From: Polytrichum commune
Lineage: Eukaryota > Streptophyta > Polytrichopsida > Polytrichales > Polytrichaceae
DNA length: 64,000 nt
Direction of reading: 5' to 3'
Assembly (NCBI GenBank): GCA_950295325.1
Contig: OX485803.1
Coordinates: 16,244,001 to 16,308,000, forward strand
The position numbers were made by a program, and so were the translations under genes. Under the pieces are notes generated by a model. It was given only the letters and a program-made list of their open reading frames with translations. It was not told where the DNA came from and did not search any database. This document shows positions 33,101 to 46,610 of this stretch, piece after piece (within the stretch, counting starts at the first letter, position 1; each line of letters starts with the position of its first letter).

Positions 33101-34014
33101 GATATTGAATTTGATGTTATTAATTACATGTGAGGTGGGTTTACATTATGGTTTGGGTCCAAGGAACTTAAGGTCCAAAACACTCCTCAACCCTTAAAGG
33201 CATGAGGTTTTTGATATACGGTCATAAACGCAATTTATACAAGCCTCGTTAATTTCCATAAATCACATATGGTAAATGATGTTTGTAGTCTCACTTTACA
33301 AATTTTAGATTATGTCAAAGATAAAAGAAGATATTATCATGCTTGACATCGATGATCAAAATACAATGCATAGATCTACGTCCAAGGGCGTTCATACCGA
33401 GTATTTGAACCTAACTCTTTAATAATGTTTAACCCATTCAAATAGAGTACTTGGAAGAATAAGGCTAAGATCATAATGGGATTTGGAGGATAGTCATTCC
33501 ATATTAGAATCACTTCTATTTTTCTCGTACCTTAGACCCAAACTCTAGTGAAAAAGTCCTTGAGTCCAAAAAAAATTCTAAGCCTTATTCTTCAAGTTCA
33601 CTTTTTCTCTCCCTTATGCGTTCAAGAAGCCCATGTACGCAATGTTGTAAGAAGTGCACCTTAAGTTACATTGTTACTTTCAATGAGTGGGGATTGTCAT
33701 TTGGAATCATGAAGGAATATAACTTCTTGCAAAAGATGCCACATTGTAGTATCAAATCTTACCATGGTTCATAAAGTGCACACCGTCAATTCAAAGTGTA
33801 TCCTCGATTAAATTGTTAATGTGGCACCTTTTACAATCTAGGCACTTTGATTGATAAATGTGAATTGATTTCGTGCCACATCAATTCTACATACCTCAAC
33901 CAACCATTGCGTGACACGTGGCATCCTCACTCTAGAGAAAAAAGATACTATGGTATACCACTATGTAACTCCAAACGACAACTTGGCAACTATTACGTCA
34001 AAGATGTAGTAGTA

Positions 34015-34170
34015 TGTACAAAGCAATGGTGATTCAAGTAGACATGCCTCGATTGAAACGATTTGGTTCGTGGTTAGGTGTGGATCTAAACCGACACTAT
34101 AAGAAACACGTGGTTTACATGAGATTGGACCACATGCGCAAGATATGCTAACCATTCTAAGCTCAATAGC
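34015..34170 (-). repeat. Poly-C dispersed repeat copy, reverse orientation
   Basis: The plus strand reads CTCAATAGCC at the outer end and GGTTAGGTGTGGATC at the inner end. In reverse complement this gives GAGCTTAGAATGGTTAGCAT, then TGGTCCAATCTCATG and GATCCACACCTAACCACG, in the order seen in the other copies. The C-rich tract is replaced by GCGCCGGCTATT. Confidence 0.65.
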
Positions 34171-34936
34171 CGGCGCGATTGAGAGGACCTGTACGACCGC
34201 TTGATGAGCACGAACTTCTTCACTTTGACAGCGAACAAGTTACTCGTTACGAAGCCCGAAAATCACGAGGCAAATGGCGATGGGCACGATTTGGCTTTGT
34301 TAATCATCTTGCACTACCACTTACGTGTTTCCATATCATACGAGAAGTGCATGTAGAGAGAGAGGGAGAAAAGAATGCTTGATCTACACACGTCATGTTA
34401 GCTTATGAAATATTTGTCGTGCTTTTAATGGCGTCCCAATTTCCATGAAAAGCACAAACCCCGCCACGACTAGGTGAGTCGGATAAATAAGCAAGTGATT
34501 GGTGTTCTAGTATCTTTGTACGGGGCCTTGGATAAATTGGAGCCTCCAAATCCCAAGGAAGAGCTAACTTATTTAGGGGAGGGGGCTACTAAGTTAGGCG
34601 GGGACCCATAATACTCATTCCTTGTTAGAAACATCGAGACGCGTACATTTCGGTGGAAAGAATCAAGGCCCAGGCGTAGATTTGGGATGGGTGGTGCAGT
34701 CGCTTCATACGGTTGATTGCTTGCCCTAGGGGCCTTCGCTTCAGCCATAGCTGCCGACCGACCTTCCGCCTTTTGATCGCAGATTGCAGGCAGTTGTCTG
34801 CCACCGTCGTGGATTGATATGCTCGAGAACGGAGCGGGGCGAGACGATCTGTCAGACAAGCCATCCGGCGCCAAATTCCTCGCACTACAGCGTCAGAAAT
34901 CGTCGCGTGAGCGCAGTAGGATATCGTTTCGTCGCC

Positions 34937-37900
34937 ATGGCATCGCAGGACGTGGAAACGTTCATGAGCATCACCGGATGTGATCGAGCCGTGGCGGAGC
35001 AGAGTCTCAGGGTAAGAGAGGGAGTGTGACGGGAAGGAATTCGCCAAGGCAAGGGGAGGAGCTAGGGGCTCGGATATGCGTGTGTACATGCCGTCTCGTC
35101 ATTCCTAGGGTTTGTCTGTGGCATCAGTGATGCAGCCGTGTGGTTCATCTGGAGAGGAATTGGATGCGTGTGGGATGATGGCTGTCTTGAGAATTAGTGT
35201 GTTGTGCTCTGCATTTTGGCATACCGACGCTATAGCTCGGGGTGGAGCTGAATTGTGCTCCTTATATATTGGCCCTGAACCCGTAGTATCTTTTACCTGA
35301 AATTTTGTAGTCCACAGCGTATACAATTTGTAGATGTGGAAACAAGCCTATTGTATTTACGAGGAAAAGACTCTAGTTATGGAGGAAAGGACTCCAATTC
35401 AACAAGACGAGGAGCTCTTAACGTGGCTTAGGGTTCAGGCATGCGTTTGTACATTCGGTCTCATCGCACCTAGGGTTTTTCTGTGGCATTAGTGGACCCG
35501 TGTGGTTAATCTGGAGAGGAATTGGATGCGTGTGGGATGATGGCCGTCTTGGGAATTTGTGTGTTGTGCTCTGCATTTTGGCACACGATGCTATGGTTCA
35601 GTGGAACTGAATTGTGCTCCAAATATTGGTCCCGAGCCCGTAGTATTGTTGACCCGAATTTCTAGTGGACAGTCTATATAGTTTCTAGATGTGGAAACAA
35701 TCCTGTCGTGTTCACGAGGAAAGACGGACTCTAGTTATGGAGGAAAGGACTCCAATTCAACAAGGCGAGGAGCTCTTAACGTGGCTTAGGTTTCAGGCAT
35801 GCGTTTGTACATGAGGTTTCGTCATACCTAGGGTTTGTCTGTGGTATCAGTGCAGCGGTGTGGTTAAACTGGTGAGGAATTGGATGAGGGTGGGATGCTG
35901 GCTGTCTTTGAGAATTTGTGTGTTGTGCTCCACATTTTGGCACAAGATGCTTTCGCTCGATGGAGCTGAATTGTGCTCCTGCCCTGAGCCCATAGTATCT
36001 GTTACCCGGATTTTTCCAGTTCACAGCTTTTTTTTTCTACAGATGTGGAACAGTCCTGCTGTATTGATGAGGAAACAAGGACTCTGGTTATGAAGGAAAG
36101 AAGTTTCCTTGCTGCTCCTGGTTTCCTCCTGAGAGATAAATTTGTGCATGTGGCAGAGTGGTAGACATCCTTGTCGCAAATTAGGGTTAACTTCACGTAT
36201 TCCTTTGACAGTCATGCTTTGTGTTTGATTTGTCGAGAAGTATTCGCAATTGAGTGCTCTCTTGTCAGTTGATTTTAATGACTCCATGGTGCTATGCCAC
36301 TCTCTTTTTATCAAAAGACTTTATGGAGTTTTGTTCAGTAACGTCTCTTTCGTTTATTTGGTAGTTATGTAGACAATATCCAGCTGCAAGTTCGGTGAAG
36401 TTTCATCTGGGACTTACTAAAGTGTATGATGTGTTCTTTTGTGGACCAGGCACATGGAGATATAAACAGAGCAGTTGATGCATTTCTCAATAATGAAGGA
36501 GTGCCTATATCGTATGAAACTTTTGAACCCTTTACTCATAATAGGAGGTTGCTGAATTGTCAAAGTCGGAGGCTATTATGCAATATTGCACCCATAAGCA
36601 GTTTAATGCAAGCATTGGCAATAGTAACTGGAGAAGAAGCTCCTTTCCATAATTTGATCATGCCTTGAAGACTACGTTGTGAGTACTAGATAATAACGGA
36701 CTTCCGGCATGATTCAACCAGATTAGGTTTTCTTATTATGGTCTTTCACAGTGTGCAATGTGGCACTTTGTTAATTGTTTGTCATAAAGGCTGTGCGAAT
36801 AATAAAGTCTGAATGGATGCTATTGGGGATTTATATGCTTGTGTAGGCCACATGAGGTGGAAGATATGGAAGAGGATTTGCCATCTACTGCAACAACTTT
36901 TGTGCAGCCACCACCTCCATTTGGCATATTGTCACCTTTTCAGCGAATTTCAGCTCCCAATGAACCCAGAGCACCCTGGCCATTTGAAGGGAACAGGTTC
37001 TCTGAAACCTGGGGACTTGGGGACAGGACTAGGCCTCTGCAAAACACTGCCCCCCAAGTAGCTTTTCCACCTGATGTGAGGGATGTGAGGGATGTACCCA
37101 TAGAGTGGCATGATGAAGAAGAAGATGATAATTCAGGATTACGCCATGCTCATCCACGAGGACCAGTTATTGAAGAATTGACAGGTGGTGATGACTCTTA
37201 TATGATGAATATCCCTGGCCATGTTGATCCTTCTGTTGAAGAGTTACCTAGTTCTAGTCCTCTCTTCAGGCCTGCTATGGATTTAACAAGACCTCGAGTC
37301 ACTGAAAGACATGGGTATAATGTTACAGACGATGTGGGGCCTTTTAACCCACATGCACCTGCTATTGCTGAAGTCTCTGGAATCAATGATGATGATGACA
37401 TTCAGGAGCAAATGCTCCAAGCTGCAATTGAAGCATCAAAAAGAGAGGCTGAAATAGCTTCTCAAAGAGGGGGTCCTATCATCTCAGAGGTTAGTAAGAA
37501 CATCCCCTTGTCTTAGTGTGACCCAATAGGAGCTCATGTATTTAATCTTATTGAACTCCTCTCTGTTTGTTCTTTATTCATATGGTTATATTGTGCATGT
37601 CTACCTATCTCCCTGAGTCAGGCGTTTAGTCTTTCTGTGGGTTTTGATTTGATCTCTTGTGGATACCACTTAAGAACTGAAGGCTGGAGGTGAGGATCAG
37701 TGTCTTGGTTAGGTTTACAGGTGTTTGAGCCTGTCTGGATCTAGTGCAAGTTGGATAATTTTTGTCTTAACATGAAAGCTAACTTCAAATATCATGGTTT
37801 CTTGTTGGTTATTTAGGTTATCATTTCATGGTTTTTAGAATACTTGAGATGCTTAATTTGCAGCATGCATGTTGCCATGCAGATAGATTCCCCCACTAGA

Positions 37901-40900
37901 GTTGGCTTGCGTGCCACTGGTGCAGCAGAGGATGATGACCTTGCACGTGCTGTCTCTCTCTCTTTAAAGGTAGTCCTCTTTCTCTGTGTTATGAATTTAG
38001 GGCCTGCACATTTGTGGAGCATTACCTATTTGGGAAGGATGCCCTGCTTGTTGAGATGTATGCAGGTCTTAAGAGAATCAAACATGCTGTTCATTTTGAA
38101 TTCCTCATCAATGTGGTTACAATTTTGACTTTATTAAATTGTTTGTTTAGATTATATAAGAACTCTGTTGTCTGTGAAGATGTAGTTTATATGTTCATAC
38201 CTTGTGAAGTCTATCAGGTTATTGATATTCATTTTATTTATCAGACTCTAGAGGAGGAGAAAGCATTGCGTGAACGTGGAGAGGGGTCAGGAGCTGCATT
38301 TATGGTGGAGGACGATGATGACAGTGATGAAGAGCGCTTGAGAAGACTGGCGTTTTTGAGAGGGTTGTCATCTGTTCCTGTTCTCTAACTTCCCAGATTC
38401 TAGGCTAGCTATTTGTTTTTTTCATCTAGTGTAGCTGCGTCAATGTCTCCTGTACCTCTCTTTAGGTATTGTGTGAAACAATGGTGTCACTTCTCATTCA
38501 CTTAGAACTCCGATTGTGAAAACTGCAGTGAAATGGAATAGCATGGTCGTTCACTATTGTATACATCTTGATCACTCGAGCAATGAGGTTGTTTTCCAAC
38601 AGTGTGTTCTGATCATGTAGTGGGGATGCTGATGATTGTTCAGCTCTTCCTTTGACAGGAGTACTGAACTTGGAGGGAGAGGTTTAGGTGGAAATTCATC
38701 AACTGGGTTTGGGCAGGAGGGACAGCCTAGGGGAACTGAAGGTAATTTAGCAGGTGACGCTGAGCAGTTTCATATAGAGGAGATTGAAGATACTGAGGAT
38801 GATCAACCGTTGTTCCGACGACCCTCAAGTAGGCGCACCAATGTCAGTGCTGCACCCTCAGGGTCAGCTGCCCTCCCTGCTCTGTCTGTGATGGATGTTT
38901 TACCAGCCAGACCTCAGCCCTATGAAGAAGATCAAGCGGAGCAGATGCCTCCTGCTGAACAGCATGGTTTAGCTGCTGCAAATTCATCACAGCAAAATGG
39001 TGGTTTTCCCGAGGAGGTATGCACTTTATTGATTTTTGACTTCTGAGGTGAAAAATAGAAACTCAAATATACACCGTTCCATTTCCAGAGGTAGAAACTC
39101 GAAAATGGAAATTTATAAAATGATTTTTTTGTCTGTCTCAGACTTGGGGATAGAGGCTTTGCAGGGACTCACCTCGAGTGGGTTTAGGGAATAGGGAACA
39201 GATGGTAGGCTGGATGGATAAAGTTGGCAGTGTTCCAAACTTGACCTAAATCTAGTGTGATTGGAGCAATGGAAATTGTTTGACCTTTAGTAACTTTGTG
39301 TTGAATGGAGAATAGAACAAGAGAGGCCAGGTTACATCTAGAAAGACAAGGTCATTTCCATCAATTGTGTGAGTTTGACAGCTTGCTTTTTGGGTGCAGT
39401 GGGGAGGTATATCATCTGAGGAACATGATGAGGCTGTGATGTTGGAGGCAGCAATCTTTGGTGGACTCCCAGAAACAGATATTCCACACCCTTATCAACA
39501 ACGCCACCCAGATTTGGATGCTCTTGGAGTTGCTGATAACATGTACCCTCGTCGGGTTCCACAGCAACCCTCTCCAGCTGTTGAAGCACAGCGTCGAATT
39601 CGTGAAGAGCAGGTTACCTCACTGTTTTATTATATGATTTCTTTTGGGTTATGCTTTCTTGATTTTCCTGAAGCTGAGTAGGTGGCTACAACTGTTCATT
39701 ACAAGTTTCTAGGCTACTAATTGTCTCTTTTGTAAAGTTCAATGCATGAACTGGATGCTTTTGGCACCTTGTTAGTTGGAGACAGCCATGAAAGCGATGT
39801 GAACAATTGGTCATGTACGTGCTCATCTGTACTCTGTGTTTTGGTTCAACTTACTTTGATCAGAGATGACTCAATGTAATTGTGGCTGGTATGGCAGGAT
39901 GCGGAGTTTCAACAATCACTGGCTGCAGACCATCAAAAAGCATTGAGGGCTGCTCAGGAAGCTGAGGAAAGGCGCAGGCAGGATGAAGCTGCTGCTGCTG
40001 CTGCTGAGGCCCAAGAAAGGCTTCGCCAAGAAGAAGAACTCAGGCTCCAGCATGCTCAAGAGGTCTGGATGTGATAACCATTTCCTTATTCTTGGTATAA
40101 AAGAAGTTGTGACAAATATAGGCTTTTGCTAAACGAAGTTTATCAGTCATTTTTTCTGGTGATGTCAGGAACTTTGATTTTTTGATTATCCTTACAAATC
40201 ATCACAGGAAGTTTTTGATCCCATTATGTTGGCAACACTATTGGATGTATGTTTATTTTTACTTCTCAATTGTAGGCATGTTTTTTTTTACTCATTCTGT
40301 CACTGAGGGATTTTTACATCTCAGATGAAGTTTGGTTGGTAAATCACAGCTACATTACATCAGGGTTATGAATATTGTAGGCTATATATCTTCATGAGCC
40401 TTTATGAGCCATCTCAATTAAGATCTTCATTAGATGCGCATTTTCTACTTTGAAAAAGGGACCGTCTTGTTCATCTTTACCCTGGGTCTTTGAAGGAGTT
40501 GGAGAGGCAACTTGCAGTCAAAAGAGCATCACTACCACCAGAGCCTGCTAGTGATGATGAGAATGCAGTGAAGCTTGTGGTTCGTATGCCTGATAGCTCC
40601 AGGCGTGGTCGTCGTTTTCTAAAGTCCAACAAGCTTCAGGTATCCTGTTCTTTGAAAGTATCAGTTTGTCGCTTTTCCACTGCACGTGAGTTGCTCATCA
40701 TCTGTGTTCCTGGCACTGGAATTCCACTGTGTGGAAGGTATACATGCCTCCTGTTACTATTCATATTAAAGTGACGAGTCTGAAACTCACATGATACTGT
40801 CAAGGTGCTGGCATCCAGTACATCTGTTCTGGTTGGATTTGACTTTGATACATCTGCCCTTGAGCATAGTGTTCAAGGTCGATGAATATGTTTCCCATAA

Positions 40901-41367
40901 TTGATAAACTGAATTTGTTTCTTGTACGCAGGTGTTGTTTGATTTTCTTGATTGTAGTGAAGACATCAAACCAGGTTCCTACAGATTGGTACGATTTCCT
41001 CTTTCCACTTGCATGTTCAATTGGACCGACTTTTTCTGAAACATGTACTTGAAATCTCATGCATTGTGCAGTAGTATACATCCAAGCTTGAGACAAAACA
41101 CTGGAAGAAAATGGATGGTTATGAAAGACCCACTTTGCTGACAGGGAAGGTTCACGGTAGCAAATACTTATTCTTATATTTGATAGCCCCAGCATTAGAT
41201 CACTTGAGAGTTGTATGATACTACGTTAGCTGAGACTTCATGCCTTATAATGGATGCAGGCAACAGCTTACCCTCGGCGCATGCTTACAGATAAACAACA
41301 TGAGGAGACATTTCAAAGTCTTGGGTTATCTAGTAAACAAGAGCTCCTTAATTTGGATCTGATTTGA
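34937..41367 (+). CDS. PUX8: PUX8/SAY1-like plant UBX-domain protein
   Basis: Eleven coding exons: 34937-35011, 36450-36511, 36847-37489, 37883-37969, 38245-38363, 38659-39016, 39400-39612, 39898-40062, 40496-40639, 40932-40988, 41260-41367. GT-AG throughout, phases join, 676 aa. Layout: UBA-like N-terminus (residues 1-45, [12 protein letters not shown] then [13 protein letters not shown]); ubiquitin-interacting motifs at about 230-250 ([16 protein letters not shown]), 276-289 ([13 protein letters not shown]) and 455-470 ([16 protein letters not shown]); charged coiled coil about 520-585; UBX domain about 593-676 ([20 protein letters not shown] ... YPRRML ... [10 protein letters not shown]). 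The [18 protein letters not shown] block matches what I recall of Arabidopsis PUX8. Such proteins bind ubiquitin and dock on the CDC48 ATPase through UBX. Exon ends at 36511 and 38363 were chosen to keep phase and are the weakest. Confidence 0.93.
35100..36095 (+). repeat. Tandem triplication (~360 bp) in PUX8 intron 1
   Basis: CCTAGGGTTTGTCTGTGG (one-base variant in copy two) occurs at 35104, 35469 and 35827. Each copy continues with CGTGTGGTTA(A)TCTGG, GAGGAATTGGATG, GTGTGTTGTGCTC, CATTTTGGCA, GAATTGTGCTCC and a GGACTC(T/C) phrase. Copies one and two are close. Copy three is more diverged and shorter. Confidence 0.9.
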
Positions 41368-42348
41368 TGAGGAGTTTCCAACCTTCTTGGCTCCTTTGAG
41401 GTAAAGGGCCTCCAGAATATTGATACTAGGGAACACATCCTCCAACATATACACAGATGTAGTACACAACGGATGGATTGAAGGGAATAATGTATTGGCC
41501 TGTTAATAGCAGTTCCTTCCTCAGTTGGTATGTTTGTTCCAGATAACCTTGTCATTTTTGGACTCTGAAATATCTTTAACGGGGTCAGTTTTTCAACTTG
41601 GACGTGGCTGGCCCATCTTGTTGGAGTTGTCTCATTCCATAAGTGCCACTAGATGATTTCCCATAGGTGGTTGAAGAACCAACAGGTTCAAGGAGGTGGC
41701 TATGGTTTCCCCCAATGTTGAATTGCTCAGTGTTTAAATTTGGGCCATGGTTATGCCAGTAGGTGCAATCTGTACAATTCATGGATTGAGGAACTCGCAT
41801 GCTTCACTACTCATCTTGTATTAATGTAGTAATAAGACTTCACCTTATGCAGTGCCCAGAATGCACCTTCCACCTCTTAGATAGGCCTTCGATCCTGTTT
41901 TGCAATACCAGCTTGTGTTGCAGGATTGTGTATGAAAGAGTGCATATTCTTTGCCTTCCATATTTCTGTTAGTTACGCGCATTAGATGACGGAATGCAGC
42001 CAAGAATTGTGTTCAAGGGTATGTTGTTACAAGTGTGTTCTTAGGAAAATGTATTTTACAAAACAGTGGTCCAAATAGCAAAGATCTATTCAGACAAAGT
42101 TGAGTGAATACTGAAAAGGCAGCCTCACTGTGATTACAGGATACTTGTGTCTTCCAACACCTGCTGGTGAAAAATCTAAACCCTATATCTTGCATTATTT
42201 GGACCATTTTCCAACAAAAGCAGGTGTTGGAAACCGTCTTGATCACAAGATTGCGGATCCCAAGGGCTCGTTTGTCAGGCTGATTTCGAGGAGTTTTAGG
42301 CACTTGATTGTTCTAGTACCTAGGAGCCAACAGAGATTTCAATGCAGC
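41368..42348. other. Intergenic region between tail-to-tail PUX8 genes
   Basis: This is the probable 3' UTRs of the plus-strand PUX8 gene and of the minus-strand paralogue. CCAACACCTGCT (about 42156) and its reverse complement (about 42221) form a loose hairpin. No frame is convincing. Confidence 0.5.
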
Positions 42349-43003
42349 TTATGATTTCTGATGATTTGAAACATCAGTGACGGTTGGTGCATTTGGATTG
42401 TACGTGTAATTCGAGTCACTAATTTCATGCGTTCCATTCCTTGCGGGCTCACTTGGCATCTCCACCACGCAGCTGTTTCCGGGAGCTGAGGCTATGTCTC
42501 GCAATCGAGGATCTCGAGATGCGGTGACATCTTCAATTCTTGGACCCTGGGGTGGAGGATCGTCGAGCCATTCAATCGGGACCTCGCGGACATTCCGAGG
42601 AACAGCTGCTTCGGGCCTTAAGTTCAGTGTCTGAAAAGCTTCTCCTCGGCCTGCCTCAAATTCCGGGAAGAGTTGGAGCAGCAGCAGGGAGGGCGAGCTA
42701 GGTTGTGACCTGCACGGGACGGGATGGCGGTGAATCAGAAGTATGATCCATATCGGTGTGTGTTTTTGTTTTGGTTGGATTGCTAAATAACTCGGAAATC
42801 GAGACTGGGAACAATCTACCCCTACCTATTCGATTTTCAATAGCATAGCGTCCATGTTTTTGTCATCCATACATGGCACGAAGCTGCCTTGCATCGATAC
42901 CCGCATTTGCATTTGCAACCACGAGTATGTGCCTTGCTAGTTGTGGAGATGCTCCCGTGGCCCTCATGAAGGCTTGCAAATCTTCTTCGTCTTGGTTGCT
43001 CAT
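42349..43003 (-). CDS. Short PUX8 paralogue lacking UIM and UBX regions
   Basis: Exon 43003-42873 starts MSNQDEEDLQAFMRATGAS, the same UBA-like opening as PUX8 ([15 protein letters not shown]). Exon 42709-42349 reads PEFEAGRGEAFQTLNLRPEA, then VPRNVREVPIEWLDD, GPRIEDVT and YTYNPNAPTVTDVS before a stop. It corresponds to PUX8 exon 3 ([13 protein letters not shown] ... [14 protein letters not shown]). The exon 3 acceptor has the same phase as in PUX8, and a GTATGG donor in the right phase ends the first exon, giving an open 163-aa protein. The stop falls just before the first ubiquitin-interacting motif, so all UIMs and the UBX domain are absent. The first exon appears to fuse PUX8 exons 1 and 2. 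It is either a reduced functional gene or a young pseudogene; the open frames favour at least recent function. Confidence 0.72.
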
Positions 43004-43175
43004 CTTTGTCTTCCGTGCACTTGAAGCTTGCAAAGTTCTCTCACGGAAACCGAGATTGAGAGCAACCTACCTACTTACTTACCTATTTGATTTTCCTAGC
43101 GTAGCATAGCCTAGCATGTTTTTGTGGCACATCGAATGCATCGATGTCTGTGTGTGTCTTCTCTTTCCCCCATGA

Positions 43176-43277
43176 TCATGTGTTATTTGCCACCGCCAGT
43201 ATGATTTGCTTTCCTAGTCGCCGCGGAGATGCTCCAATGGCCCTCGTGAAAACTTCCTTGTCATCTTGTTCACTCAT
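43176..43277 (-). pseudogene. Second copy of the paralogue's first exon
   Basis: MSEQDDKEVFTRAIGASPRR then LGKQIILAVANNT and a stop: 33 codons, the same UBA-like opening as at 43003. The surrounding ~270 bases are also duplicated (GGAGATGCTCCCGTGGCCCT / GGAGATGCTCCAATGGCCCT and GTGCACTTGAAGC in both). Start codons are 274 bases apart. It could serve as an alternative first exon or be dead. Confidence 0.7.
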
Positions 43278-44121
43278 CTTCGCCTTCTGTGCACTTGAAG
43301 CTCCCCATTCTTCTCCCCTTTTAAGGACTACTGAACTCCACTCCTTGTGTGAGTACTTGAGCAAGCTTGAAGATGGCTTTTCTGACATCAAGGGACGTAC
43401 ACGCTCGTATCACATCATGTATAAATTATAGTCATTTAATGAAAAGCCTCAATTTCTTTTAAATCTATTAGAGTTATTTGTAAACTATCTCAAAGAGGGA
43501 TGAAACCGAAAGTTAAATAATGTTCAATCCAGCTATGTGCTGGTAATTTAAAGATAGAGTGTTCCATGATTACTCCATGATTTCTGTGGATGAAATAGCC
43601 AGGAATATCTGTAAAAATCATTAGAATTGGACAAGAATGCCAACTTTTGGATGAAAGTATATAAATTTGGTGAAAATTTGTACAACCATCCATATGTGGT
43701 TATGTTACTCCAATAGTTGTAGCCAGTGCTCCTCTCTTGAAAACTTGAGACTAAATCATTGGTGGGTTTGATCCTTCTTTGAGAAAACTTTCTATTGAGA
43801 GCTTGTTGGCTTGTTATGTTTTGAAGCCTATTTTTAAAAGGCGGGTGAAATTTATGAAACCTCCTCTTTCCACCTCAAACTTTGAGAAAGTTTTAGGATC
43901 TACAAATAGGGTGTTTGCATGAAACTCATTGTCCTAAATCTTGGATTGGACCCATCCTATCAGGACACACTAGGAAGCCGGTTTTAATAGCTTGACACCA
44001 CTCTCTACGTATGCTAATTTAAGCATCAAGAAGACATGGATGACTTTGTGTTAATTCTCGTAAACTCAAGGTTTAGGACTAAACCCATGGTTTCATCTAC
44101 TTCACTTATGGAAAAACTCTA

Positions 44122-44354
44122 GGGGATTGTTAAATCGACCACACATTGGTTAAAACGACCACAATCACTATGCAAGGTGTCAACTAGGCTAACTCGTCAT
44201 CCAAGTTGGCCAAGTTCATTAACTCTAACACAGAGTTGATACCTTGCTCCTCTTCATGTATGATGGAAAATCAAATCTTGACAGATCATGTGACCATGCG
44301 ATGCGTCTTTGTGGTTGTTTTAACAAACTATGTGGTTGATTTAACAATTCCTTG
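44122..44354. mobile_element. 233-bp MITE with ~40-bp terminal inverted repeats
   Basis: The left end GGGGATTGTTAAATCGACC and on to AAAACGACCAC pairs with the right end (GTGGTTGTTTTAACAAAC to TGATTTAACAATTCCTTG). ACTCTA flanks both sides (44116-44121 and 44355-44360), a plausible 6-bp target duplication. A truncated relative lies at 12842-13020. The superfamily is not assigned. Confidence 0.75.
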
Positions 44355-44564
44355 ACTCTATTCTCTCAAAAGTATCAATTTGGTAGACAAGGTGTCTATA
44401 TCAAATTGCAGTGTGAAGGGTAGGCATCAATTTCCCACACAAGACACTGGCTTGAGATATGTAGGAAATTGATGATCTTAGTGCCATGAGAGGATAAGGA
44501 AAGAAGGAAGAAAAACTTTATGATGGTTACAAATCAACCTAACAAACATCACTCCTCATAGTAA

Positions 44565-45011
44565 GAGCAAGCCCACTCTCCTTGCATTTGCATCTGAATT
44601 TGCACTTTAACATTTGCAACGTAGATGCAGATGTAGGGAAGTCACCCACTCACTGACATAAATATTAAACACAAATGAAAGTTTATGCCAAAAGCCTCGA
44701 ACTCCTTGCATATGTAAGAGACATGCATGGAGGGTTATAAATAATAAGACAATTTTTTTTTTATAACCTTTGACCTATTATTTTTCTCTAGTATCAACTA
44801 GTTATAGATGACGGGATGAGTTTGAGAAATAACCGGTTGTGGTTTGGGACTTCATAACATTACCCGTCACTTTAGAGGAAACTCAAAAGTTAGTATCAAA
44901 AACAACACATGATGAGTGGCAATTTTGCATGGGTCTGCATCTACATCTTGGATGGAGGTCACTTTTCATTCCCGGATGCAGATGCAAATCCAAGAACAAC
45001 CAAGCTTGCTC
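44565..45011. mobile_element. 447-bp Tourist-like (PIF/Harbinger) MITE
   Basis: The ends are GAGCAAGC and GCTTGCTC, with further subterminal pairing (TTTGCATCTG against CAGATGCAAA). TAA flanks both ends (44562-44564 and 45012-45014), the target duplication expected for PIF/Harbinger elements. The interior carries no transposase. Confidence 0.78.
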
Positions 45012-45189
45012 TAAGGGGACAAAATTGCGAAGGATACTTTGGTCATCCTTAATCTCATTATTTTATGTAGACATTGAGATTCAAGTAAAATCATGCTTTT
45101 TGTACGCACTTTTCTAGAATCAAATTTTCTTAATGTAAGATAAGGTCAAGAAATGCGCTATATATGGGTGGGGACTATTGACATATTAG

Positions 45190-45854
45190 ATGGAAATAGC
45201 ACCAAGGCAACTAAGTCTTATACACAAACTTGTATATGCAAAATACGGTTGTGTTGCTTATGGGCGTAAGAACAACAATGCTCGTATAAATTTGACACAA
45301 TTGAGAATATCGTCGTGGGTGATGTTTAGACTTCCCGCAAATTCCAATGTGAAGTTAAGCCAACCTCTTACAAGTGTTCAATTTAGATCTACTGCTTACC
45401 GTACCTAGTACAAGTGACAAAACTTGAACCAAAGGCACCGGAACACGTCCCATATATGAAGGAGGCACAACTTGAATTATTTCATTCAATGCAGATGGAT
45501 AAGGTTACGAGGAAGTGTCAGGCGGCATAAATTTTTGAAGTACAACATCAACCCTTTTAGGCCATCTTGCAACCCAATGTGAACTCGTAGGGTGACGGTT
45601 TATTCTTGAAAGCTCAATCATCGCTATTTCAACATGAAGTTGGGCTTTATATAACACGGCCCTCTTGTCTTGATGTTCAAATGGGTAATGTAAGCAAGCA
45701 ACGGGCCTCTATGAGAGGTGTTTATTTTAAAGAGGATGGTAACCTTCTATGTTCACGTCGCATTAAAAATGGAGTGATTATCCGTTCGTACACCAATGAA
45801 GTACCTACCAAGGTCTACATAGTAGGTAAGCTATTCCAAATCCATTTACCGTGA
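45190..45854 (+). pseudogene. Decayed coding-like stretch, unidentified
   Basis: One frame runs from about 45456 (MKEAQLELFHSMQMDK) to 45854 with three stops in the first half and is then open for 83 codons (GLYITRPSCLDVQMGN ... NGVIIRSYTNEVP). Upstream, a second frame at 45190-45408 is open for 72 codons. Composition resembles coding DNA more than the flanks do. I do not recognise a family. Its place just before an LTR-like segment suggests a retroelement remnant (inference). Confidence 0.35.
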
Positions 45855-45949
45855 TGAACCATGGTGGAACTTTGATTAAGAGATTGATTGATTGATTGAT
45901 TGGGGAAGAATGATGATTAACCATATTCTGATGTGTTTAGCATGTGAGC

Positions 45950-46610
45950 ATACGGTCATTGGAGTCAAATAACTTTGGAGGAAGAAATGGGCTAGACAAC
46001 CCATGGACAGACTGTGCACGGGAGTTAGACAACTTCCGAACAAAGGTCTTTGCATTAACGTTAGACAACTCCAACTGGGAGTTAGACACCTCCCTCTGAA
46101 AGATCTTTGCGTTGGAAGTTAGACAACTCCAACTAGAAGATATGAATTGGAGTTAGACAACTCGTAGCGGATAGATGAATTGAGTTGGAATTAGACAGTT
46201 CCAACTAGATGAATGGATGAATAAGTTAAGTTGGAATTCAACGATTCCAACTGGAAGAATGTGATTGAGTCAACAGATGGAAGCAGGGTTTAGAGGAACC
46301 AAAGATAGAAGATTCATTGTAGAACTAAAGCTAAAGCTATGAATATAAGATGTTTACTATATTTGGAAATAGAAAGTAAAAGCAGTGCTTTTTGGCATAA
46401 GAAGAAGCTCGGGGGAGGAGAGAGGGTCTCTTCTTTTTGTCTCTCTCTTGTGGTCGGGTGGTTCAAGCTTATAGTCAATCACATTGTATTTGTTAAGGGT
46501 AAAGTTTTATGTTATACTCAGTTGAAAGCTCACAATTATTGTATTGAGCGTAAATGTTTTTTGTTTTATTTATGAGCGATTGAGGTAAGTGAGACTTACC
46601 TCGTTTGGGT
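45950..46610 (+). repeat. LTR-like segment, copy 1 of an inverted pair
   Basis: It has repeated (G/A)GTTAGACAACTCCAACT phrases with AAGATCTTTGCGTTG spacers, then a GGTCTCTTCTTTTTGTCTCT stretch and TGGTTCAAGCTTATAG. The same series occurs in reverse complement at 55180-55930. The low-complexity repeat of GTTAGACAACT plus the downstream unique part resembles a plant Copia-type LTR, but the boundaries are not clean. Confidence 0.5.

What the first reader, a model, noticed from the sequence alone, without database searches (positions are those of the whole stretch)
42349..43003. Compact PUX8 paralogue: UBA-like start without UIM or UBX domains, tail-to-tail with the full gene
A two-exon open gene of 163 codons sits 1 kb beyond PUX8 on the opposite strand. 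It keeps the first exon, the exon 3 core (REVPIEWLDD, NPNAPTVTDVS) and the same intron phase, but stops just before the first ubiquitin-interacting motif. A protein with only the ubiquitin-binding-like end and no CDC48-docking UBX domain could compete with PUX8. The two convergent transcripts could also form overlapping RNAs.
Basis: partly seen in the sequence, partly recalled or inferred. Interest (0 to 1): 0.78.

Follow-up and report, generated by a model that had tools for sequence, protein, structure and literature searches.

The report
Short UBX-less relative of plant PUX8
Next to a normal gene for a protein-recycling adaptor lies a shortened, heavily diverged copy that kept its front part and reading frame but lost the parts that dock to the CDC48 machine; it could be a small decoy protein or a recently dying gene, and only expression data or relatives can decide.

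Summary
On the minus strand a 163-codon two-exon frame (43003-42873, 42709-42349) is a real relative of the PUX8-type gene at 34937-41367+ (BLASTP E 2e-9). Its exon 1 corresponds to PUX8 exons 1+2 with intron 1 missing; its intron sits at PUX8 intron 2, in the same phase 2. The frame ends at about the first UIM; no UIM or UBX is recognised.

The copy is old and was constrained as protein for at least about half of its life: protein similarity is far above shuffles (116 versus maximum 71 of 1000), DNA similarity is weak (p 0.40 strict, 0.018 loose), and simulated copies neutral from birth never match it (0 of 400 in each of four settings).

Whether it still works is open. The UBA-like match is below Pfam's cut-off, and a possible UIM1 remnant at the stop hints at late truncation. 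The decoy idea is plausible (trans-microProtein-like) but untested. Nothing here supports overlapping transcripts; the stops lie 981 bp apart. No related plant genome or RNA data could be reached.

The parts
42873..43003 (-). Exon 1 of the short gene (copy B): UBA-like N-terminus, MSNQDEEDLQAFMRATGASPQLARHIL...RAM; matches PUX8 exons 1+2 fused
   Evidence: UBA_4 18.1 bits, profile 1-26/43, below cut-off 21.8; AlphaFold2 of the unspliced 46-aa frame: three helices, pLDDT 93.5, against 60.8 for one antisense control frame of 49 aa
42710..42872 (-). Predicted phase-2 intron at the position of PUX8 intron 2
   Evidence: GT..AG, phase 2 in both genes; no RNA evidence
42349..42709 (-). Exon 2 of the short gene: homologue of the PUX8 exon 3 core (REVPIEW, PQGPRIEDVT, YNPNAPTVTDVS), ending in TAA
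   Evidence: BLASTP E 2e-9 to PUX8 exon 3; protein 116 versus shuffle maximum 71 of 1000; DNA p 0.40 strict, 0.018 loose
42338..42351 (-). Stop codon (42351-42349) and possible remnant of UIM1 beginning in it
   Evidence: AAGCTGC-ATTGAA against PUX8 AAGCTGCAATTGAA, p 0.007 strict DNA, 0.40 as protein
43176..43277 (-). Second copy of exon 1 (copy A), 33 codons then in-frame TGA
43042..43317 (-). Upstream unit of the tandem duplication of leader, exon 1 and start of intron
   Evidence: local alignment score 537 with 43044-42791
42791..43044 (-). Downstream unit of the same tandem duplication
34937..41367 (+). PUX8-type gene, about 11 exons, UBA-like + two UIM-like + UBX; the intact relative
   Evidence: 675-aa model: UBX 7.4e-12, UBA_4 5.9e-10, UIM 0.048 with two stretches, below cut-off; exon edges placed by eye, the exon 5/6 edge is uncertain

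Best explanation
The frame is a truncated, old local paralogue of PUX8 that was for long, and probably still is, a small protein gene. An inverted partial duplication (or duplication plus later loss) left the UBA-like front end and the conserved linker but no complete UIM and no UBX. The protein was constrained at amino-acid level for at least about half of the time since the split (supported by simulation). Most likely it works, if expressed, as a trimmed adaptor: the UBA-like end or the conserved linker binds a partner of PUX8 (ubiquitin, a ubiquitylated client or PUX8 itself) without bringing CDC48 or ATG8, so it buffers or competes with PUX8 (inferred, untested).
For: Protein similarity is strong (116 versus maximum 71 in 1000 shuffles) where DNA similarity is weak (p 0.40 strict; 0.018 loose). 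Third positions differ in 55 of 84 aligned codons. In a two-branch simulation with PUX8 constrained, a copy neutral from birth never reaches the observed protein score without a stop (0 of 400 in each of four settings); neutral for the last three quarters: 0 to 0.010; for the last half: 0 to 0.092; for the last quarter: 0.048 to 0.195 (indels not modelled). Three anchor blocks keep order and frame with differences 8, 3 and 22 by codon position (p 9e-5, but chosen for protein similarity). Surviving as a 163-codon frame without stop or frameshift has simulated probability 0.079 at 0.05 and 0.006 at 0.1 substitutions per site, assuming 0.1 indel per substitution. The phase-2 intron is kept. The exon 1 frame folds alone into a confident three-helix model (control). 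GC at codon positions 1 and 2 resembles PUX8 (position 3 is higher, 0.45-0.47 against 0.35). Where copies A and B differ in residue and PUX8 matches one of them, my reading by eye of the hand-placed alignments gives B 4, A 1.
Against: No RNA or relatives. UBA-like match below cut-off and covering only profile 1-26 of 43. The fold model is not specifically UBA: best Z 5.0 is EutV, UBA chains score 2.0-2.8; Foldseek has no match with E <= 0.001. Between copies A and B exon 1 is no more conserved than the leader and intron (70/87 versus 32/39 and 61/72), and their third-position excess vanishes with DNA alignment (p 0.15-0.17). Nine ATGs precede its start within about 305 bp. The donor has T at -1. 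A last quarter of neutral drift is not excluded (up to 0.195).
Confidence: 0.47

Rival explanations
1. A recent pseudogene: a long-functional paralogue that lost its 3' half and then picked up a stop in UIM1; the remaining frame is open only because little time has passed.
For: Possible UIM1 remnant with a one-base gap at the stop, stop-bearing tandem copy of exon 1, ATGs upstream of the start, no PUX8 exon 4-11 peptide scoring above its 100 shuffles in 41380-44600 on either strand, A/B exon as diverged as the A/B intron, a last quarter of drift not excluded.
Against: The frame of 163 codons, splice sites and intron phase are intact; neutral survival without stop or frameshift is already under 0.1 at 0.05 substitutions per site under the assumed indel rate. 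The UIM1 remnant is not significant as protein (p 0.40).
Confidence: 0.4
2. The exon model is wrong: copy A, copy B and exon 2 belong to another transcript layout (for example alternative first exons, or intron retention giving a 46-aa UBA-like peptide ending MYG-stop).
For: Copy A carries AG|GTAAGT at its end; the unspliced 46-aa frame is modelled with pLDDT 93.5; the donor used by the two-exon model has T at -1.
Against: In copy A that donor follows an in-frame TAG; PUX8 donors, as placed by eye, also vary widely from consensus; of the donors I looked at only GTATGG keeps the frame and PUX8's phase.
Confidence: 0.1
3. A non-coding antisense or convergent RNA locus regulating PUX8.
For: Convergent arrangement only.
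Against: 981 bp between stops; DNA similarity between the copies is weak (p 0.40 strict; 0.018 loose), so extensive base pairing with PUX8 mRNA in trans is not expected; overlap would need long 3' ends.
Confidence: 0.03

Closest known systems
PUX8 / PUX7 / PUX9 / PUX13 (plant UBA-UIM-UBX adaptors of CDC48 and ATG8; PMC8181520, passages seen)
   Same: N-terminal UBA-like segment and the exon 3 core of the neighbouring PUX8-type gene, intron 2 phase
   Different: No complete UIM, no UBX; so no known CDC48 or ATG8 docking part
TaPUX8.2, a wheat splice variant lacking the UBX domain (PMC10959940, passages seen)
   Same: A PUX8-type product without UBX
   Different: Made by splicing of a full gene, not by a separate gene; UIM content not stated in the passages I saw
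trans-microProteins (duplication followed by trimming to one interaction domain; PMC7534434, passages seen)
   Same: Separate trimmed duplicate of a multidomain gene, small product
   Different: No demonstrated interaction with the parent; the retained segment is ubiquitin-binding type rather than a dimerisation domain
Isolated UBA domain of human FAF1 (PMC3410879, abstract seen)
   Same: UBA part of a UBX protein acting alone when overexpressed
   Different: Artificial construct in human cells

Membership tests
PUX (plant UBX-containing) protein | UBX domain | tested here: not met
   No UBX match in the 163-aa product; no PUX8 exon 4-11 peptide above its shuffles on either strand of 41380-44600
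PUX7/8/9/13 subgroup | UIM motif | tested here: not met
   Frame stops at the UIM1 position; no UIM match in the product
PUX7/8/9/13 subgroup | N-terminal UBA-like domain | tested here: inconclusive
   UBA_4 18.1 bits, cut-off 21.8, 1-26/43; three-helix model; UBA chains Z 2.0-2.8 only
PUX8 paralogue (common descent) | significant homology to PUX8 exon 3 with the same intron phase | tested here: met
trans-microProtein | small separate gene from duplication and trimming of a multidomain gene | tested here: met
   163 aa, homologous to the neighbouring 675-aa model; that it is expressed is not shown
trans-microProtein | binds and modulates the parent protein | not testable with these tools
   needs binding assays
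Processed (retro) pseudogene | all introns lost | tested here: not met
   A GT..AG intron at PUX8 intron 2, same phase, is predicted, although intron 1 is absent
Unprocessed pseudogene | disabled reading frame | tested here: inconclusive
   Copy B frame intact for 163 codons but shorter than PUX8; copy A has a stop

The most novel reading that the evidence does not exclude
A long-maintained stand-alone gene for a UBX-less, UIM-less PUX8 fragment acts as a built-in decoy (trans-microProtein) on the CDC48/ATG8 adaptor pathway, possibly with a second product, a 46-residue UBA-like peptide made when its single intron is retained.
Probability: 0.25. Interest if true: 0.6.

Novelty: new variant of a known kind. 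Interest (0 to 1): 0.4.

Why it matters
If the short gene is expressed, it is a natural separation of the ubiquitin-reading end of a PUX8-type adaptor from its CDC48- and ATG8-docking ends, encoded as its own gene. Deleting it would show directly whether such adaptors are held in check by trimmed relatives. If it is dead, it is an ordinary local duplicate caught in decay.

Tried and rejected
Dead-on-arrival duplicate: rejected, since simulated copies neutral from birth never keep the observed protein similarity with an open frame (0 of 400 in each of four settings). A first, one-branch version of this test charged all divergence to the copy and so overstated the case (0 of 200 at 1.2 substitutions per site, but 0.065 at 0.8); one search replaces it, and the claim is now 'at least about half of its life' rather than 'most'. 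For that reason I lowered the best explanation from 0.50 to 0.47 and raised the pseudogene rival from 0.37 to 0.40. Retrocopy: rejected, as an intron is kept. Purifying selection shown by the A/B tandem pair: first seen with a codon-aware alignment placed by hand (positions 2, 7, 13; p 0.012), then withdrawn because DNA alignments under five settings give p 0.15-0.17. UBA fold by structure comparison: inconclusive; the best rows are EutV, Rv1626 (their ANTAR regions, a label I recall) and designed helical proteins. A PDB sequence search gave only three HSIE1 chains at E 0.012-0.072, not taken as meaningful. The C4:18123155 UBA-like hit was checked as a possible closer relative: it appears to lie in another UBA...UBX gene with an intron at a similar place in the UBA segment (read by eye), and shows no exon 3 core above 60 shuffles. 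Other copies of the short gene in the genome: none found, but the first look is insensitive; searches did not even pair the short gene with PUX8, so absence is not shown. Rfam: no match at gathering scores in 33500-46000. Full dN/dS against PUX8: synonymous sites saturated (pS 0.77). UIM1 remnant with loose scoring over a longer stretch that includes coding sequence: p 0.005, not specific to the remnant.

Literature searches listed no separate PUX8-derived gene without UBX among the titles and abstracts shown; they cover open-licence papers only. Seen: passages of PMC8181520, PMC10959940, PMC11410653 and PMC7534434, abstract and outline of PMC3410879; the others only as listings.

Full report
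What is there. The window lies in a 408-Mb genome held in 64 contigs. On the plus strand, 34937-41367, sits a PUX8-type gene. My exon-by-exon model (675 aa; exon edges by eye, the exon 5/6 edge uncertain) matches UBX (7.4e-12), UBA_4 (5.9e-10) and, weakly, UIM in two stretches (0.048, below cut-off). On the minus strand, its stop 981 bp from the PUX8 stop, lies the short gene given in the finding: exon 1 43003-42873, intron 42872-42710, exon 2 42709-42349 with TAA; 163 codons.

Is it a PUX8 relative? Yes. Exon 2 matches PUX8 exon 3 with E 2e-9 and 37 identities in 116 columns, in order through REVPIEW, PQGPRIEDVT and YNPNAPTVTDVS. Exon 1 aligns with PUX8 exon 1 (score 35 against a shuffle maximum of 33 in 100), which is weak by itself, but it lies upstream of exon 2 and ends in the same intron phase. 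In PUX8, intron 1 (phase 0) splits the UBA-like segment after SLR and intron 2 (phase 2) follows VPI-S. The short gene has no intron at the first place and a phase-2 intron at the second. A UBA...UBX gene on C4 also seems to end its UBA exon at about the intron 1 position, so intron 1 is probably ancestral and was lost in the short gene (inference).

How it evolved. A strict nucleotide comparison of the short exon 2 with PUX8 exon 3 gives nothing above shuffles (19, mean 18.4, p 0.40) and a loose one only a weak signal (206, mean 157, maximum 230 of 500, p 0.018), yet the protein comparison gives 116 against a maximum of 71 in 1000 shuffles. Third positions differ in 55 of 84 aligned codons, so the split is old. 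In two-branch simulations with a constrained PUX8 and branches of 0.8 or 1.2 substitutions per site, a copy neutral from birth reaches the observed score without a stop in 0 of 400 runs in each of four settings; neutral for the last half in 0 to 9.2%; for the last quarter in 4.8 to 19.5% (indels not modelled, which favours survival). The short gene was therefore constrained as protein for at least about half of its life; a late phase of drift is not excluded. In the three anchor blocks differences fall 8, 3 and 22 on the codon positions; the blocks were chosen for protein similarity, which favours this pattern. Over all 84 aligned codons pN/pS is 0.47 (bootstrap 0.35-0.64), with synonymous sites saturated. 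The open frame itself would rarely survive 0.05-0.1 substitutions per site of drift without stop or frameshift (0.079 and 0.006, at an assumed 0.1 indel per substitution).

What speaks for decay. A tandem duplication of about 250-275 bp (43317-43042 and 43044-42791) doubled the leader, exon 1 and the start of the intron. The upstream exon copy (A) has an in-frame TGA. If transcription starts upstream of it, nine ATGs (43308 to 43107) precede the one at 43003. Between A and B the exon is no better conserved than the leader and intron (70/87, 32/39, 61/72). A hand-placed codon alignment gave a third-position excess (2, 7, 13; p 0.012), but DNA alignments under five settings did not (p 0.15-0.17); I do not count it. 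At the stop, AAGCTGC-ATTGAA resembles the PUX8 UIM1 stretch AAGCTGCAATTGAA at the collinear place (p 0.007 strict DNA, 0.40 as protein; looser scoring prefers another alignment, p 0.023). If real, exon 3 once ran on into UIM1 and the stop is late. No PUX8 exon 4-11 peptide scores above its 100 shuffles on either strand of 41380-44600, and the 981 bp left before PUX8 could not hold these exons and introns at PUX8 size. So the UBX end was either never copied or deleted; the order of events is unresolved.

What it could do. The exon 1 frame read on to its first stop is 46 aa (the spliced product shares all but its last two residues) and is modelled as a confident three-helix bundle from a single sequence (pLDDT 93.5), against 60.8 for one antisense frame of 49 aa. 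It is not specifically UBA by comparison: no Foldseek match with E <= 0.001, although UBA or UBA-like domains are at ranks 1, 2 and 4 with E 1.3-3.2; VIA-align gives its best Z, 5.0, to EutV and 2.0-2.8 to UBA chains. Pfam UBA_4 scores 18.1 bits, under the cut-off of 21.8. PUX7, 8, 9 and 13 bind ATG8 by UIM and CDC48 by UBX (PMC8181520, passages). A product without either would be expected to dock to neither; in rice OsPUX8B.2 the UBX is needed for both (PMC10959940, passages). Precedents for part-molecules are a wheat splice form lacking UBX (PMC10959940, passages), the FAF1 UBA domain acting alone when overexpressed (PMC3410879, abstract) and trans-microProteins (PMC7534434, passages). Competition with PUX8 is thus plausible and untested.

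Convergent transcripts. The two stops are 981 bp apart and the scanned downstream stretches have no AATAAA or ATTAAA (AATAAT at 41486+ and 42199-). Transcript ends are unknown; nothing here supports overlap.

Verdict. It is a truncated paralogue of PUX8 that was long under protein-level constraint. A working small decoy gene (somewhat under even odds) and a recently disabled gene remain the two serious readings.

Noticed in passing
35061-36050: Intron 1 of the PUX8-type gene holds three tandem copies of a roughly 358-bp unit, one pair 89% identical over 182 nt.
   Followed up: no
43466-43508: A stretch of about 43 bp upstream of the short gene recurs at 29 other listed places over the genome at 81-94% identity, a lower bound; no Rfam match in 33500-46000.
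   Followed up: partly
42152-42232: Short inverted repeat (TTCCAACACCTGCT...AGCAGGTGTTGGAA) between the two genes, seen by eye; the 970-bp stretch around it has no other DNA match in the genome search.
   Followed up: partly
L015 (G000 C4:18118400-18123300): Another apparent UBA...UBX gene whose UBA-like exon seems to end at about the same intron position as PUX8 exon 1.
   Followed up: partly
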